Source of the DNA: a bacterium
GTDB taxonomy: Bacteria > JAMCPX01
NCBI GenBank assembly: GCA_021792615.1
Contig: JAJYUJ010000059.1
Span: 1 to 9,861 of the forward strand
DNA length: 9,861 nucleotides
Direction of reading: 5' to 3'
Within the stretch, counting starts at the first letter, position 1; each line of letters opens with the position of its first letter. The notes under the pieces are model-generated. The model saw only the letters and a list, made by a program, of their open reading frames with translations. It ran no database searches and was not told the DNA's origin. Below, piece after piece: positions 2,522 through 9,798 of the stretch. A program made the translations under genes and the position numbers.

Positions 2522-2860
2522 TTAGAGCGAACCTTTTATGAAACTCATGAGTTCCTGAACCCTGAGTTTATTAATGACCGCATGGTATGATGAATTATAT
2601 AATACCAGGAGAAAATATTCTTTTGTCAGCCTGTACATACCGAGAACATAGGGTTTCATGCTTACAAAAACGGAACGCGGCTGTTCATCGAAACCATTGA
2701 TGGCATTAAACAGTATGCTGAAATGCGCTCCGATAACCTTTAAGTCGTACTCCGCAACCGACCCGACAAGATCTATTGCCTCTCCTTCGGAGTCCACAAA
2801 AATAACACCCTCGACACCGCTTGAAAGGCTGATGAAGTTTTGCAGGGCGTCCCGGTACAT
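2522..2860 (-). CDS. Roadblock/LC7 (MglB-like) domain protein
   Basis: This 112-residue protein is essentially one domain. The predicted order is helix (1-14), a beta hairpin over GVEGVIFVDSEGEAID (15-30), a long central helix (about 38-60), three strands (about 63-90) and a C-terminal helix (about 94-110). This is the roadblock/LC7 layout, and the hairpin with its VDSEG turn is the typical family signature. Bacterial roadblock proteins such as MglB are usually dimeric partners or activators of Ras-like GTPases (MglA), acting in polarity, motility or signalling. No MglA-type GTPase is encoded in the window. The start is 1 nt after the smc stop (TAAcATG) with only a weak purine-rich AGAAAGAAG upstream, so translation is probably coupled to smc. 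It lies between smc and ftsY, so a role with either is possible but unproven. The fold call rests on pattern recognition. Confidence 0.78.
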   Translation of the reverse strand: MYRDALQNFISLSSGVEGVIFVDSEGEAIDLVGSVAEYDLKVIGAHFSILFNAINGFDEQPRSVFVSMKPYVLGMYRLTKEYFLLVLYNSSYHAVINKLRVQELMSFIKGSL

Positions 2861-2861
2861 G

Positions 2862-5800
2862 TTATACGGCTTCTTTCTGAAGTTTCACGGAAATAATCTT
2901 CGATACTCCTGGCTCTTCCATGGTTATACCGTAAATAACGTCCGCTATTTCTATTGACCTTTTATTGTGAGTTATGAGGAGGAATTGGCTCTTTGTTGAA
3001 AGTTCTTTTATGATATTGTTGAGCTTCCCGACGCTCGCATCATCCAGCGGTGCATCGATTTCATCAAGCAAAGCAAAGGGACTCGGTTTGACCATAAACA
3101 CGGATATGAGCAGCGCTATGGCTGACAGTGCTTTTTCCCCTCCGGACAGTAAATTTATGTTTTGTAATCTCTTGCCCATGGGTTGGATAACGATCTCCAT
3201 ACCGCTCTCGAGCAGGTCCTGTTCATCGGTAAGGATGAGTTCGCCCTTCCCTCCCTCGAACAGTTTCGGTATGACCTTTTTAAAGTTTTCGTTTACTCTG
3301 TCGAAGATTTCCCTGAATAATTTTCTCGATTCTTTATTTATCGAGTTGATGACTTTCTTCAGATTATCGATGGCCTGTTCGAGGTCCTGCTTGTGTTTCT
3401 CATAAAATTCGACTCTCTTTTGCAGTTCCTCGTATTCAGCTATTGCACCGACGTTAACGTCTCCCATTTTTGCTATCTTTTCCGAGAGTAAAGCAAGCCT
3501 GTCCCTGCCTGGCTGGACATCATCTTTTTCTATCAGCTTTCCATCGAATTGTTCGAGCTCCACACTGTATTTGTCTCTTGCCGTATCTTTGGTATAATCC
3601 GCTTTCATGGTCAGCTGAGACACCTCTATTGCCAGGGAAGACTCTATTGCTTTGATTGAGCTGATATCTTTTTCGAGCTGCTTGATTTCCTGTTCTATAT
3701 CCGAATACTCCTTGAACTCCCTGTCATAAGAAGTTTTGGCGTCCACAAGAGAATCCTGTTTCTGCTTGATGTCCTGGTTTAATCCTGCAAGCCTTCCTGC
3801 CGCCGCTACGGCTTCCTGATTCAGTGTTTCAAGCCTGGAGCCGTTATTGGAGGCCTCCTGTCTTAACGAGACCAACCTCCTGGATTTATCCTCCTGTTCC
3901 GTCTTGATCCTTTTTATTTCCGCATACTTCGCATTCAGCCTTTCTTTAAATGCAGCAAGGTTTGCGTTGCTTGCGGATATGGAATCCTTCTTGCTCTCGA
4001 GCATGGATTCAAGCTCCAACAGCGTATTCCTGAGGCTGTCCGCAATATTCGCCTTTGCCCCTTTATCCTCTTCATATATCGCTTTCTTTTGTTTTAAATC
4101 ACTGACCTCTTCCAGCAGCTCGGATGTATTCACTTTTATTTCTTCTTCTTCCATGTGGAGGGTCATCAGGCCACTCTCATAGTTGCTCAACTGGTCTTCA
4201 AGGCTCAGTAACTTCGCCCGTATGTTTGCCTGTTGTTTCTCGATTTCCTGCCCGGCACGTTCATGGCCGGCAAGTTCAGAACGGTACGCTTCTATCGTAG
4301 CGGAGAGTTTCGAACTTTCATCTTCATACCGGTTGAGGGTACCGCTCATGTCCTCGATCTCTCTTTTTAACCGCTCGAGTTCGCTCCTCCTGTCCAGGAT
4401 GCCTCCCTTGATAGTTCCCTCGGAACCTCCGTAAACTATACCGGATTTGACGACATCACCCGACAGAGTAACAGCAGTGGCCCCTTGCCCTGCCACGGTA
4501 TATGCGTCCTTCAAGGATGGTACGATAAAAACATTATTGAACAACGACTGAAACACGGGGACGACGTCGGCATCTTTAATTTCGATTATATCGAGTAATG
4601 GTACAAAACCTTCCTTACGGCCGGTCTCCGCTGCCTTGAACCAGGACTTTATGATAAACGCTGCCCTCCCCTTGTCCTGTTTGCGCAGGACATCAATCAC
4701 ACCGCCCGCAGTCTCGTGATCGGGAACTACCACGGCCTGGACGATATCACCGAGGACTGCCTGAACAGCAAGCTCATATCCTGTCTTCACATTGATATAA
4801 TCGGCAACGACCTTGCTTATATTGAATTGTTGCGATTGCTGGATAACGTACCGGGTGCCTTCTGAATAACCGTCCAAGTTCTTTCGCAGGTCCTCAAGAG
4901 TACTATACCGGGAGCGCAGGCCCTCGTAGGCCTTATTCGCTGTATCTATACGATCGGACAATGTACGCAATGCATCGTTTGCAGCGGTGAGTTGTTCATT
5001 CAGGACCGCTCTTTTCTGATCCCCGTCCGTCAGGTGAGCCGTGTTTTCTTTTTCCTGTTTTTCGAGAGCCTCTTTTTCTGCTTTCAGACCGCTTATTTTC
5101 GATTCGATGGCTGTTCTGTCGTGTTGTATTTTTTCGAGTCTGTGCGTGATGTTTTCAAAATCATGTTCCGCGGACAGTATCTGGTTATCCATCTCCGTGA
5201 TCTTCTTGACCCTGTTGAATTCATTGTTCCTTTCTTCTTCTATCTTGTCTTTTATTTCGTTGATCTGTTCTCCCAGATCGTTTTTTTCCTGTTCGTAGAG
5301 TTTCTGCGTTTCAACGATTGCGCTCAAGCCTTTCTTTTCTTCCTCTAATTTCTCTTCCAGCACGGTGAGCTGCTGAGCGAAAGATGTCTGTTCTCTTTTG
5401 AGCTCCTCTTCGCTGCTCCGTATCCTTTCGTTTTCCTGCTGAAGCGTTTGCTTCAGCTTTTTCGATGATTCGATCTTTTCCTGCAGCACCATTGCTTCCG
5501 CAGTCAGCGCATTGATCCTGTCCTGCTTACCGGATATTTCCGCTGCCTGGCTGTCAAGGCGTTCCTTGAACCGCTGATGATCCGTGTACCGTGACGAAGA
5601 CTGGGACATCAGCTTGGCCAGATCAAACCGCGTACTTTCGAGTCGCGTCTTTTTATCTTCGAGCTGAACGGTAATCTCCGAATACTCCGTTTTGAACAAG
5701 CTCAACTCGAGTGTCCTGTATTCGTCTTTCAGGATTTTATAGTCCTGTGCAATTTTTACCTGTTTGTTCACCTGGTTCAACTGCCGTTTAATCTCGGACA

Positions 5801-6404
5801 AAAGATCGGCAATGCGGCCTATGTTGGCTTTGGTCAATTCTATCTTATCGAGTGCTACTTTTTTTCTGTTTTTATATTTCAATATGCCTGCAGCATCTTC
5901 GATGACGTATCTGCGCATCTCCGGCTTGGCATCTATGATCTCGCTTATCTGTCCCTGCTCTATGATTGAAAACGCCTTTGAACTTATACCGATATCCATG
6001 AGGAATTCGAGGATATCCTTCAATCGCCTGGTATCCTTGTTCAGATAATATTCGCTCTCTTCTCCGCGGTACATCCTTCTCGTGACAACCGCCTCCGAAA
6101 AGGTATCGACTGACGGTGCGCTGCCTATCCCGTTGCTCGTGAAAACGAGAGACACGTCGGCCATACCGATCGATTTCCTGTGTTCTGAACCGTTAAAGAT
6201 AAGATCGGACATCTGGTTCGCCCTGAGCTGTCTGGCACTCTGTTCACCCATACACCATTTCACGGCGTCAACGATGTTGCTCTTACCGCTTCCGTTCGGG
6301 CCCACGATAGCCACAATGGGGTATTCAAAATTGAAACTGACCGGGTCTACAAAGGTCTTAAATCCCTGAATCTCGAGTTTTTTTAATTGCATGTATGCAT
6401 CCAT
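2862..6404 (-). CDS. smc: Chromosome segregation ATPase Smc
   Basis: Bacterial Smc dimerises into a ring and, with ScpA and ScpB, compacts and segregates the chromosome. The 1180 aa are full length. The N-terminal head has KKLEIQGFKTF and Walker A GPNGSGKSN (35-43) with the Q-loop IIEQGQ (147-152). Coiled coil runs from about 170 to 505. The hinge spans about 507-665 (DGYSEGTRYV to VYGGSEGTIKGG). The return coil is about 668-990. The C-terminal head carries signature LLSGGEKALSAIALL (1085-1099), Walker B FALLDEID with the D-loop APLDD (1110-1122) and the switch His in LLITHNKRS. All ATPase elements look intact. The hinge and full length separate it from RecN, SbcC and MukB. The annotated ATG is 1 nt after the TPR stop. 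A second ATG at 6392 (Met5) fits the usual family N-terminus better. Neither has a strong Shine-Dalgarno. ScpA and ScpB are not in the window. Confidence 0.97.
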   Translation of the reverse strand: MDAYMQLKKLEIQGFKTFVDPVSFNFEYPIVAIVGPNGSGKSNIVDAVKWCMGEQSARQLRANQMSDLIFNGSEHRKSIGMADVSLVFTSNGIGSAPSVDTFSEAVVTRRMYRGEESEYYLNKDTRRLKDILEFLMDIGISSKAFSIIEQGQISEIIDAKPEMRRYVIEDAAGILKYKNRKKVALDKIELTKANIGRIADLLSEIKRQLNQVNKQVKIAQDYKILKDEYRTLELSLFKTEYSEITVQLEDKKTRLESTRFDLAKLMSQSSSRYTDHQRFKERLDSQAAEISGKQDRINALTAEAMVLQEKIESSKKLKQTLQQENERIRSSEEELKREQTSFAQQLTVLEEKLEEEKKGLSAIVETQKLYEQEKNDLGEQINEIKDKIEEERNNEFNRVKKITEMDNQILSAEHDFENITHRLEKIQHDRTAIESKISGLKAEKEALEKQEKENTAHLTDGDQKRAVLNEQLTAANDALRTLSDRIDTANKAYEGLRSRYSTLEDLRKNLDGYSEGTRYVIQQSQQFNISKVVADYINVKTGYELAVQAVLGDIVQAVVVPDHETAGGVIDVLRKQDKGRAAFIIKSWFKAAETGRKEGFVPLLDIIEIKDADVVPVFQSLFNNVFIVPSLKDAYTVAGQGATAVTLSGDVVKSGIVYGGSEGTIKGGILDRRSELERLKREIEDMSGTLNRYEDESSKLSATIEAYRSELAGHERAGQEIEKQQANIRAKLLSLEDQLSNYESGLMTLHMEEEEIKVNTSELLEEVSDLKQKKAIYEEDKGAKANIADSLRNTLLELESMLESKKDSISASNANLAAFKERLNAKYAEIKRIKTEQEDKSRRLVSLRQEASNNGSRLETLNQEAVAAAGRLAGLNQDIKQKQDSLVDAKTSYDREFKEYSDIEQEIKQLEKDISSIKAIESSLAIEVSQLTMKADYTKDTARDKYSVELEQFDGKLIEKDDVQPGRDRLALLSEKIAKMGDVNVGAIAEYEELQKRVEFYEKHKQDLEQAIDNLKKVINSINKESRKLFREIFDRVNENFKKVIPKLFEGGKGELILTDEQDLLESGMEIVIQPMGKRLQNINLLSGGEKALSAIALLISVFMVKPSPFALLDEIDAPLDDASVGKLNNIIKELSTKSQFLLITHNKRSIEIADVIYGITMEEPGVSKIISVKLQKEAV

Positions 6405-6405
6405 T

Positions 6406-9400
6406 CTACATTAGGTTTCTTAATTTGTTTTTTGCCGTATTTTCCATTTCGCTTGAAAGACCAAGTCCTATGGCCTTGAGGAGCGCTGCCTTTGCCCGTT
6501 CAGGCTCGTTCAGGTTCGCCAGCATCATACCCTCTTTGAAATATGCAGCCGCCGGATTCTTGCTGAACTTAACCGCATATCCATACTCTGTCAATGCCTT
6601 TTCATACATACCGTTATACTCGTAAGCCGTACCGAGTGCATAATATGCGCTCCCGTTGTCCGGAGCAATCTGAATCGCCTTTTTATAGTACTGCTGCGCC
6701 CGATCGATATCGCCGTTCTGATAATAAATAGTACCGAGTCCCACCATTGCTTTTGAATAATCCGGAGAAAGACCGAGGGCGGTCAGAAATTCCTTTTTTG
6801 CATCCTCTATCTTGCCTATGTAGTTGTAAGCCTCACCAAGCCTGTAATGTATCTCCGGATTTTTTGGCGCAATTTTCAAAGCCATCGTAAGGTAATCGAT
6901 GGCAGAGTATGTTTCTTTATTGTTGTAATAGTAATTCGACAGCGCAAGCAGGTAGTCCGGATTAGACGGTGCATACTTCATGGCGTTTTTCAAATCGTTG
7001 ATAGCTGCAATAGTATTGTTGCCTGCGATATTCATAAGACCCCGCTGATAGTATGCATCAGCCATTGCCGGGTCTCTATTTATGGCACTGGTATATTCGT
7101 TAATGGCGAACTGGATATTTCCCATGTCCCGGTACACATTCCCGAGCGCGTAATGATACACGGCATTGGTAGGATTTATCTTTATAGCACTTTCAAGGCA
7201 GGAAACCGCAGACGTAAACACGTTCCCGGCCTTGTATGCATTTGCCAATTTATAAAAAACCTTGGCATCGTATGGCTGAGCAGCTATAGAAGCATTGTAC
7301 GCTTTGATCGCATCATTCAGCCTGCGCTCGTTAAAATAAACGTCACCGAGTACTTCGTATCCATACGGCAGGGTAGAATTGATCGATAAGGCCTTTAAAG
7401 CATACTTCTCTGCTTGTGCATACTTCAATTCCTTGTTGAGCATTTCGGCCATATAGGCATCGTCCGTTGCTGAAACCGGTGATATGCTCAGTGCTGTGTT
7501 CAATTGCACAACCGCACCGGTATAATCGCCTTCTTTGCCCAACACCACGGCGTATTCGGTATGGAGGGGTGCGTACGAGGGGAACCGGTTCACTGCATTC
7601 AACAGCATGGCAGCGGCATTCTTGTAATCTTTTTTCTTCCTGAGCAGCCTTCCGTTCAGGGTAATAAACGCCGGATTGTCGGGAGACAGTTGAACGGCTC
7701 TCTCGATCGTGTTTAAAGCCGTATCCAGCTCCCCGTTTCCTTCCCGTGCAAGGGCCATCCCATAAAGAGCATGGAGGTTGTTCTTATCCAGCTTGAGACA
7801 TTCTGTGAAATAGGAAATGGCAAGAACATATTTTTTATCGAGATAGTATGCCTGGGCAAGCTTGAGGTAGCCATCAGCCGTTGTGCTGTCGGTTGCTATG
7901 GCCGTCTTATATTCGTTCTCCGCTTCGTTCAAATTGCCGATCTTCACGTACACATCACCGAGGGCTATGTATGCTTTCGCGGTTTTATTGTTCTGTAAAG
8001 AATTATTAAATGCTTCCTCGGCAGCCGGATAATTATTCAGGTGCATCTGCATCCGTCCTATGGTGTAGTACAAGCTTGCCTTATCGTACGAATCTATTTT
8101 GCTGCCGGCTTTGTTTAAAATATCATTCAAGTCGGCTATAGACTGCGTCGTACCGGTAGCACTGCTGGCCTGAATACGTGCCTTGAGAATAACTGCGGAT
8201 ATATTATATGGATAACCGGCAAGTATAGTATCGAGGATTTTAACAGCACGGGACGGCTCTTGCTGCTGTTGATATATTCTTGCAAGCAGGAGTTTTGCCT
8301 TGATCATATCGGGCTCGAGCGTTGCAGCTTGTTGAATGAGCGATGCTGCCGTTGTCAAAGATTCGCCCTGTTTAAAATCGATATATCCCCGGTAATATAA
8401 TGCTTCGGGCATGTCGGGAGACTTTTGTAACGCTGTGTCTATCTCCCGGGATGCATGGTTGTAATCATCGTTTGCTATGGCTATCATCGTTTCAACAAGA
8501 TGATAGCGGGCATCGTCGTGCAGCATGATCTTTAGACGTGAAAGGAAAGGAACGCTATTTTTCAACTCTCCCTGCAGATTGTTCCTGCCCTTGAGCACTG
8601 CATAGTCCTTTGCTATACCGATATAAGCGTTCAGCAGATGGTGGTCTGCGGCAAGAGCCTGTTCATAAAGGTTCAATGAACTCTCATAACCGCTGATGGT
8701 CCCCTGCAAATACTGTTTATCTGCCCCGTCGAGCAATAGTTCTGCGCGTGCTTTTGCTTTTGCAGAAGCGGGTATTACGCTATAACTCATGAACGTCAAT
8801 TTCTTGAAATCCGGGTGTGCCGGGGTATACTCGACAAGATAGTAATAAATTCCAAGAAGAGCCCCCAAAACGATGATGATGCCTGCAATCGATGCGGTCA
8901 GTAGTTTTGGCAGGTGCTTTTGCGGAACGGTGATTTTTTGTATAGGTGTTGCATCTTTTGTTGCCGGTACGGATTCCGGTATGGTAACAGCACCTTCCTG
9001 AAGCAGTGAAGTTTCTTCTTCGGATGCTCCGGGAACATTTTCCGGCCGGGGCGGTTTTGTATCCGCCGGCTCGGGCATGCTTTCTTCCTGCATCAATACG
9101 GTTTCATCCGGCAGTATGCCCATATCCGGTTGATCCTGTGCCTTACCGGCAGAAGATTTCCCAAGATCGGTTGATTCGAGCCAGCTCGTGTCCTCCTCAC
9201 CGGTTCCTTCTTCTTCCCCGGCTTTTTGTGCCGGCGCTGCTGCCCCTCCGGCATCGGATTTGATGTCATCCATGGAGAATTCTTCGAACCCCTCTATTAC
9301 ATCCCCCTGCTCGTTCGGCTCATTGCCGGCAGTCTTTTCCGTTTTATCCGCACCGGCGGTTGTTCCGGTCTCTTTTACCGGTGTTTCGTCCGGTCTTCCG

Positions 9401-9798
9401 ATGTCGGTAAAATCCATTTCAGGAATCGTCTCTTCACCGGCAGGAACATCTGCCGGCTTTTTTTCGCCGGTGTCCTGTATTTCAAGGGATTCGAATATAT
9501 CATCCAGATTCGTTTCTCCTTTTTCCGGCTTCACGTCGTCCTGCGCAGGAGCATCCTGTGCCGGTTTGCTGCCTGCCGCATCTGCCATCCCTGAATCATG
9601 CGACTCAGGTGAGACCGGCTGGTCCTGTTCGGGCGGTAACCCCTGCTGCCTGTCGTGCTGCTGGACGTCCGCATCGGAGGGCAGTGCTACCGTATTTTCA
9701 TGTCCGCATTTTTTACAGGTAAATTTATAGTTCTGATTTTTAAGCTGGGCCTCGGTAAACATATACATCGTTTGACAGTCTTCACACCTGAGAATCAT
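6406..9798 (-). CDS. Zinc-ribbon, single-pass membrane, tetratricopeptide repeat protein
   Basis: Four parts are visible. Residues 1-40 are an MJ0042-type zinc ribbon with CxxC pairs Cys5/Cys8 and Cys28/Cys31. Residues 40-297 are an acidic Pro/Glu/Ala/Gly/Thr-rich, probably disordered linker. Residues 299-321 are a transmembrane helix (TASIAGIIIVLGALLGIYYY). Lysines and a histidine just before the helix favour an inside N-terminus, which would put the rest outside the cytoplasm. From about residue 390 to the end there are about 20 TPR units of roughly 34 residues, with the usual W/Y-x-x-LG/A...Y...A...F/Y...A...P pattern. TPR arrays bind proteins; no enzyme motif is present. The start has a strong GGGAGGGG ribosome site (9801-9808) and overlaps the stop of the upstream frame as ATGA. 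The stop is 1 nt from smc, so the two are probably co-translated. The function is unknown; a membrane scaffold is the most that can be said. The topology is inferred. Confidence 0.9.
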   Translation of the reverse strand: MILRCEDCQTMYMFTEAQLKNQNYKFTCKKCGHENTVALPSDADVQQHDRQQGLPPEQDQPVSPESHDSGMADAAGSKPAQDAPAQDDVKPEKGETNLDDIFESLEIQDTGEKKPADVPAGEETIPEMDFTDIGRPDETPVKETGTTAGADKTEKTAGNEPNEQGDVIEGFEEFSMDDIKSDAGGAAAPAQKAGEEEGTGEEDTSWLESTDLGKSSAGKAQDQPDMGILPDETVLMQEESMPEPADTKPPRPENVPGASEEETSLLQEGAVTIPESVPATKDATPIQKITVPQKHLPKLLTASIAGIIIVLGALLGIYYYLVEYTPAHPDFKKLTFMSYSVIPASAKAKARAELLLDGADKQYLQGTISGYESSLNLYEQALAADHHLLNAYIGIAKDYAVLKGRNNLQGELKNSVPFLSRLKIMLHDDARYHLVETMIAIANDDYNHASREIDTALQKSPDMPEALYYRGYIDFKQGESLTTAASLIQQAATLEPDMIKAKLLLARIYQQQQEPSRAVKILDTILAGYPYNISAVILKARIQASSATGTTQSIADLNDILNKAGSKIDSYDKASLYYTIGRMQMHLNNYPAAEEAFNNSLQNNKTAKAYIALGDVYVKIGNLNEAENEYKTAIATDSTTADGYLKLAQAYYLDKKYVLAISYFTECLKLDKNNLHALYGMALAREGNGELDTALNTIERAVQLSPDNPAFITLNGRLLRKKKDYKNAAAMLLNAVNRFPSYAPLHTEYAVVLGKEGDYTGAVVQLNTALSISPVSATDDAYMAEMLNKELKYAQAEKYALKALSINSTLPYGYEVLGDVYFNERRLNDAIKAYNASIAAQPYDAKVFYKLANAYKAGNVFTSAVSCLESAIKINPTNAVYHYALGNVYRDMGNIQFAINEYTSAINRDPAMADAYYQRGLMNIAGNNTIAAINDLKNAMKYAPSNPDYLLALSNYYYNNKETYSAIDYLTMALKIAPKNPEIHYRLGEAYNYIGKIEDAKKEFLTALGLSPDYSKAMVGLGTIYYQNGDIDRAQQYYKKAIQIAPDNGSAYYALGTAYEYNGMYEKALTEYGYAVKFSKNPAAAYFKEGMMLANLNEPERAKAALLKAIGLGLSSEMENTAKNKLRNLM

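What the first reader, a model, noticed from the sequence alone, without database searches (positions are those of the whole stretch)
2522..2860. Roadblock/LC7 protein wedged between smc and ftsY
Seen: a one-domain roadblock-like protein starts 1 nt after smc and ends 6 nt before ftsY. Known: bacterial roadblock proteins such as MglB usually act with a Ras-like GTPase (MglA). None is encoded here, while the very next gene is an SRP-type GTPase and the previous one is the SMC ATPase. Inference: it may be a regulator or dimeric adaptor for Smc or FtsY, or the partner of a distant MglA that sets cell polarity in step with chromosome segregation.
Basis: partly seen in the sequence, partly recalled or inferred. 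Interest (0 to 1): 0.6.

Follow-up and report, generated by a model that had tools for sequence, protein, structure and literature searches.

The report
Roadblock protein family between smc and ftsY
A small gene squeezed between two core cell-biology genes encodes a roadblock-fold protein of a widespread, apparently undescribed family, separate from the known polarity regulators MglB and MglC, that has stayed next to the same two genes across several bacterial phyla.

Summary
A 112-aa ORF (2860-2522, minus strand) starts 1 nt after smc and ends 6 nt before ftsY. Pfam alone is sub-threshold (Robl_LC7 E=0.018), but a family profile hits solved roadblock proteins (MglC, 5.6e-12) and an AF2 model (pLDDT 88) matches MglB, LAMTOR and Asgard roadblocks at Z 14-17. 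The arrangement is not unique: in 47 distinct homologues from at least five phylum-level groups, smc is directly upstream in 38/46 and ftsY is the next recognised gene downstream in 33/45; 27 have both, only 3 neither. A tree separates MglB, MglC and this set ("Robl-SF"), which lacks the MglC residues that bind MglB and mostly those that bind RomR, and has its own D-x-E-G-E turn. In one large phylum canonical MglA occurs in 23/25 Robl-SF genomes against 14/101 tested genomes without it. Most likely it is a homodimeric adaptor of the MglA GTPase network, co-expressed with Smc and FtsY; the direct partner is not shown. A sister genus lost the gene cleanly yet keeps smc-ftsY and MglA/B/C.

The parts
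2522..2860 (-). Robl-SF: stand-alone roadblock/LC7 protein, 112 aa
   Evidence: ORF; profile matches; fold
2780..2794 (-). codons of residues 23-27, DSEGE: family signature D-x-E-G-E at the beta1-beta2 turn, the position of the MglC 'FDI' surface
   Evidence: alignments A1/A2; residue counts; secondary structure
2862..6404 (-). smc, chromosome segregation protein SMC, 1180 aa; ends 1 nt upstream of Robl-SF
   Evidence: TIGR02168 959.6 bits
1676..2515 (-). ftsY, SRP receptor GTPase, 279 aa; starts 6 nt after Robl-SF
   Evidence: TIGR00064 261.5 bits
894..1679 (-). glycerophosphodiester phosphodiesterase, overlaps the end of ftsY by 4 nt; same apparent operon
   Evidence: Pfam GDPD 4.1e-47; kept next to ftsY in the window's phylum
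6406..9798 (-). TPR protein with N-terminal zinc ribbon, directly upstream of smc
   Evidence: Pfam; same order in G006 and G007

Best explanation
The gene encodes a single-domain, probably homodimeric roadblock protein of a separate family (Robl-SF) inherited vertically with smc and ftsY. The most likely mechanism is a non-catalytic roadblock adaptor of the MglA small-GTPase network, comparable in role to MglC: the dimer would present its invariant acidic D-x-E-G-E turns to another roadblock dimer (MglB or the MglC-like protein) or to a GTPase, and so tie the polar MglA switch to the chromosome-segregation or membrane-targeting machinery made from the same operon. Shown here: fold, separateness of the family, conserved operon position, co-occurrence with MglA, loss of the MglC contact residues. 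Inferred: dimerisation, adaptor role, partner identity, any link to Smc or FtsY.
For: Fold: AF2 pLDDT 87.7; Z 16.2 to MglB, 15.5 to LAMTOR, 16.9 to Asgard Roadblock3. Sequence: closest solved relative is MglC (5.6e-12; hhalign probability 98.5%); the window genome's own MglB is more distant (74%). Position: smc directly upstream in 38/46 and ftsY next downstream in 33/45 of 47 distinct homologues in at least five phylum-level groups. Co-occurrence within one phylum: MglA of at least 70% identity in 23/25 genomes with Robl-SF against 14/101 tested genomes without it, Fisher p=1.5e-13; any MglA-like GTPase 24/25 against 62/101, p=5e-4. The window genome holds MglB-MglA (G000:C35) and an MglC-like gene (G000:C11).
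Against: Co-occurrence was not corrected for phylogeny. G060 has Robl-SF and no MglA match, G238 only a broken fragment (completeness of both not given). Genus g3 (G006, G008) lost Robl-SF but keeps MglA, MglB and the MglC-like gene. Robl-SF is not beside mglA in any locus examined. The MglC surfaces that bind MglB and RomR are not conserved, so the MglC mode of contact cannot simply be transferred.
Confidence: 0.4

Rival explanations
1. FtsY partner: the roadblock dimer binds FtsY directly and regulates its GTPase cycle or membrane recruitment, a bacterial counterpart in role of the longin-fold SRX domain of eukaryotic SR-alpha.
For: ftsY is the next recognised gene downstream in 33/45 loci. 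In six loci where smc is not adjacent the gene still abuts or overlaps ftsY (-35 to +1 nt), suggesting translational coupling. Longin and roadblock domains are related and share a general GTPase-binding mode, and SRX is a longin domain (PMC3521125).
Against: 11 loci keep smc without ftsY (two are cut by contig ends). Genus g3 keeps smc-ftsY without the gene. Roadblock and longin are circular permutations of each other (PMC3521125). The mirror-tree test does not single out FtsY. The six ftsY-only loci fall in one clade of the tree (84/82), perhaps one event.
Confidence: 0.22
2. Smc partner: the protein is an accessory dimer of the Smc complex, regulating its ATPase heads or loading.
For: smc is the immediately preceding recognised gene in 38/46 loci, with many 0-4 nt or overlapping junctions. 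At about three places in the tree ftsY moved away while smc stayed.
Against: Known bacterial Smc partners are ScpA and the winged-helix ScpB, and no roadblock subunit of a condensin is known (general knowledge). Six loci have ftsY but not smc. Genus g3 does without it.
Confidence: 0.15
3. Operon passenger: the protein has a separate role and merely sits in an old smc-ftsY operon that is inherited vertically.
For: smc and ftsY share no known pathway yet stay adjacent even without the gene (G006, G008). Distances of all three genes correlate as expected for vertical inheritance. Three homologues sit elsewhere (L007, L083, L130).
Against: The gene follows smc where ftsY leaves and follows ftsY where smc leaves, and the order persists at 17-30% protein identity across phyla.
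Confidence: 0.2

Closest known systems
MglC of Myxococcus xanthus (PDB 7CT3)
   Same: Single roadblock domain of about 119 aa, best profile hit among solved structures, aligns end to end, occurs in genomes with MglA.
   Different: Separate branch of the tree. The FDI (25, 26, 28) surface is replaced by x-E-G-E and KRR (104, 106, 110) is largely not kept. Gene sits in smc-ftsY, whereas the MglC-like genes sit in TPR-mglC-aroQ/pepP loci.
MglB (GAP of MglA)
   Same: Roadblock fold, Z 16.2.
   Different: About 161 aa with longer termini, encoded next to mglA, distant in the tree (separate 100/100 clade). The window genome already has a true MglB-MglA pair.
Ragulator roadblocks LAMTOR2/3 and Asgard roadblocks
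   Same: Fold, Z 14-17; single-domain platforms for small GTPases.
   Different: About 11-16% identity; no common gene context.
SRX longin domain of eukaryotic SR-alpha
   Same: Related fold class that binds a small GTPase and belongs to the FtsY-type SRP receptor (PMC3521125).
   Different: Longin is circularly permuted relative to roadblock and is fused to the receptor; no SRX row was seen in the fold search. Analogy only.

Membership tests
Roadblock/LC7 superfamily (Pfam PF03259) | Profile match to Robl_LC7 | tested here: met
   Window protein alone is sub-threshold (15.2 of 23 bits); 21 of 33 family members match at E<=0.01, best 8.4e-10; family profile hits solved roadblocks.
Roadblock/LC7 superfamily (Pfam PF03259) | alpha-beta-beta-alpha-beta-beta-beta-alpha fold | tested here: met
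   AF2 model and PDB comparison, Z 14-17 over 100-111 residues.
Roadblock/LC7 superfamily (Pfam PF03259) | Homodimer formation | not testable with these tools
   Only monomer prediction was available.
MglC | Groups with MglC in a tree | tested here: not met
   M. xanthus MglC falls with the TPR-aroQ/pepP-linked family (94/88), Robl-SF outside it; deep branches poorly resolved, 119 columns.
MglC | FDI residues (F25, D26, I28) that bind MglB | tested here: not met
   Position 28 is E in 46/47 Robl-SF against I in 35/37 MglC-like; position 26 is E in 35/47 against D in 35/37; motif from PMC7949163 and PMC10329633.
MglC | KRR residues (K104, R106, R110) that bind RomR | tested here: not met
   K or R at 104 in 14/47, at 106 in 14/47, at 110 in 24/47 Robl-SF, against 35/37, 36/37, 35/37 in MglC-like proteins; motif from PMC10329633.
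MglB | Encoded beside mglA; falls in the MglB clade | tested here: not met
   No mglA in any Robl-SF locus examined; separate clade.
MglB | GAP activity on MglA | not testable with these tools
   Needs biochemistry.

The most novel reading that the evidence does not exclude
A bacterial SRP receptor with a roadblock subunit: Robl-SF acts on FtsY as SRX does in eukaryotic SR-alpha, with an MglA-type GTPase in the place of the Arf-like SR-beta, so that membrane-protein targeting (or Smc) is steered to a cell pole by the MglA switch.
Probability: 0.07. Interest if true: 0.88.

Novelty: new variant of a known kind. Interest (0 to 1): 0.5.

Why it matters
Bacterial roadblock proteins are studied mostly as MglA regulators in polarity and motility. 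A third, separate roadblock family kept in the smc-ftsY operon across several phyla and nearly always found with MglA suggests a link between a Ras-like polarity switch and chromosome segregation or SRP targeting. No paper in the open library joins roadblock with smc and ftsY, and no curated NCBIfam model covers the family. It gives a short, testable list of binding partners.

Tried and rejected
Chance or single-genome oddity: rejected. An ordinary MglB or MglC copy: rejected by tree, residues and gene context. Mirror-tree partial correlations to choose between Smc and FtsY: inconclusive, the preference changes with the subset. A general link of the MglC-like locus to ffh: seen in genomes of the window's genus and in G005, not in G006, G007 or the other phyla checked. 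Bdellovibrio papers found by 'roadblock + MglA + chromosome segregation' hold the words only in reference lists. No SRX/longin domain appears in the listed rows of the fold search; that is not evidence against relatedness. Complex prediction with Smc heads, FtsY or MglA was not available.

Full report
Observation. The window's minus strand carries TPR/zinc-ribbon protein - smc - 112-aa ORF - ftsY - glycerophosphodiesterase, with gaps of 1, 1 and 6 nt and a 4-nt overlap. smc and ftsY are unambiguous. No terminator-like site on the coding strand lies at the smc/ORF or ORF/ftsY junctions. The window is contig 36 of a 2.54-Mb genome, 99.6% complete, in a phylum-level group of only nine held genomes; named relatives are uncultured MAGs.

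Is it roadblock? Alone, the protein scores only 15.2 bits against Robl_LC7, below the cut-off. With ten relatives the profile hits MglC of Myxococcus (5.6e-12) and dynein roadblocks (6e-5) among solved structures, and 21 of 33 family members hit Robl_LC7. The AF2 model (pLDDT 87.7, pTM 0.83) reads helix-strand-strand-helix-strand-strand-strand-helix and aligns over 100-111 residues at Z 14-17 with MglB, LAMTOR2/3, Streptomyces and Asgard roadblocks. The fold claim is therefore good.

Conservation. In the window's phylum six of nine genomes have it, always between smc and ftsY. G006 and G008 (one genus) have smc and ftsY 64 and 12 nt apart with nothing between (read from the sequence) and no profile hit except their MglC-like gene: a clean loss. 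G001 is 80% complete and lacks the ftsY hit too, so it is uninformative. Outside, it was found in the MAGs LH_M62, SZUA-178, SKW176 and others, in about 25 of 247 genomes of one large phylum, 10 of 12 of a second, 3 of 3 of a third and one of three of a fourth. In a spread of 386 genomes it is rare outside these groups. I sorted 47 distinct homologues by neighbours: smc directly upstream on the same strand in 38 of 46 with sequence there; ftsY the next recognised gene downstream in 33 of 45; both in 27; smc only in 11 (two cut by contig ends); ftsY only in 6 (one cut); neither in 3. Where the operon is split, the gene mostly stays with one partner or the other. In the second phylum the gap to ftsY is 39-475 nt, so a small gene could lie between in some; only smc, ftsY and mglA were looked for.

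Which family? A tree of 96 roadblock proteins gives three sets: MglB (100/100), an MglC set that includes M. xanthus MglC (94/88) and whose genes lie in TPR-mglC-aroQ-pepP loci, and the smc/ftsY-linked set, here called Robl-SF. Backbone resolution is poor (119 columns), so Robl-SF is a clear cluster but not a proven clade. Residue counts back the split. MglC's MglB-binding F25-D26-I28 and RomR-binding K104-R106-R110 (PMC7949163, PMC10329633) are largely kept in the MglC-like set (D26 35/37, I28 35/37, K/R 35-36 of 37) and not in Robl-SF, where position 28 is E in 46/47 and position 24 is D in 45/47. Robl-SF's own signature is D-x-E-G-E at the beta1-beta2 turn plus a Gly-Ala in helix 2. The turn is the place used by MglC for MglB, so a partner surface there is plausible (inference).

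The distant MglA. The window genome has MglB-MglA at G000:C35, further MglA-like GTPases and an MglC-like gene at G000:C11. In the large phylum, MglA at 70% identity or more occurs in 23 of 25 Robl-SF genomes and 14 of 101 others tested (Fisher p=1.5e-13, not corrected for phylogeny); any MglA-like GTPase in 24/25 against 62/101. The 101 were the non-carriers listed or numbered first plus those with weaker roadblock hits, not a random draw. Genus g3 shows that the MglA system can persist without Robl-SF.

Mechanism. The committed reading is a homodimeric, non-catalytic roadblock adaptor of the MglA network, co-expressed with Smc and FtsY (0.4). Rivals: FtsY partner (0.22), Smc partner (0.15), operon passenger (0.2). 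Partner identity is inference throughout. A mirror-tree test gave no stable preference. The SRX analogy rests on literature (longin and roadblock related but circularly permuted; PMC3521125) and on adjacency, nothing more.

Known or new? The superfamily is long known. No open paper held joins roadblock with smc and ftsY, Roadblock/LC7 with smc and segregation or with condensin, and NCBIfam has no model for the family. The library lacks most subscription papers, so an earlier mention cannot be excluded.

Noticed in passing
L151 7577-7936 (G000:C11); loci L057-L062, L087-L091, L102-L111: A second roadblock family, which includes M. xanthus MglC in the tree, sits in a conserved TPR-mglC-(aroQ)-pepP-(efp)-accB run in several phyla, suggesting MglC has an old fixed context.
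   Followed up: partly
L154 (G317:C1:1785000-1804000): The MglC-like gene lies near aroC and what look like pilQ- and pilM-type genes, consistent with a type IV pilus link; names judged from sequence by eye only.
   Followed up: no
L041 7470-8566 (G000:C35): The MglB-MglA pair lies between 2-oxoacid oxidoreductase-like genes and nuoA-type genes.
   Followed up: no
window 6406-9798 (-): Large TPR protein with an N-terminal zinc ribbon directly upstream of smc; also in G006 and G007. Function unknown.
   Followed up: no
L130, L134: Two divergent Robl-SF homologues follow a large sensor-like gene instead of smc; L134 still precedes ftsY.
   Followed up: no
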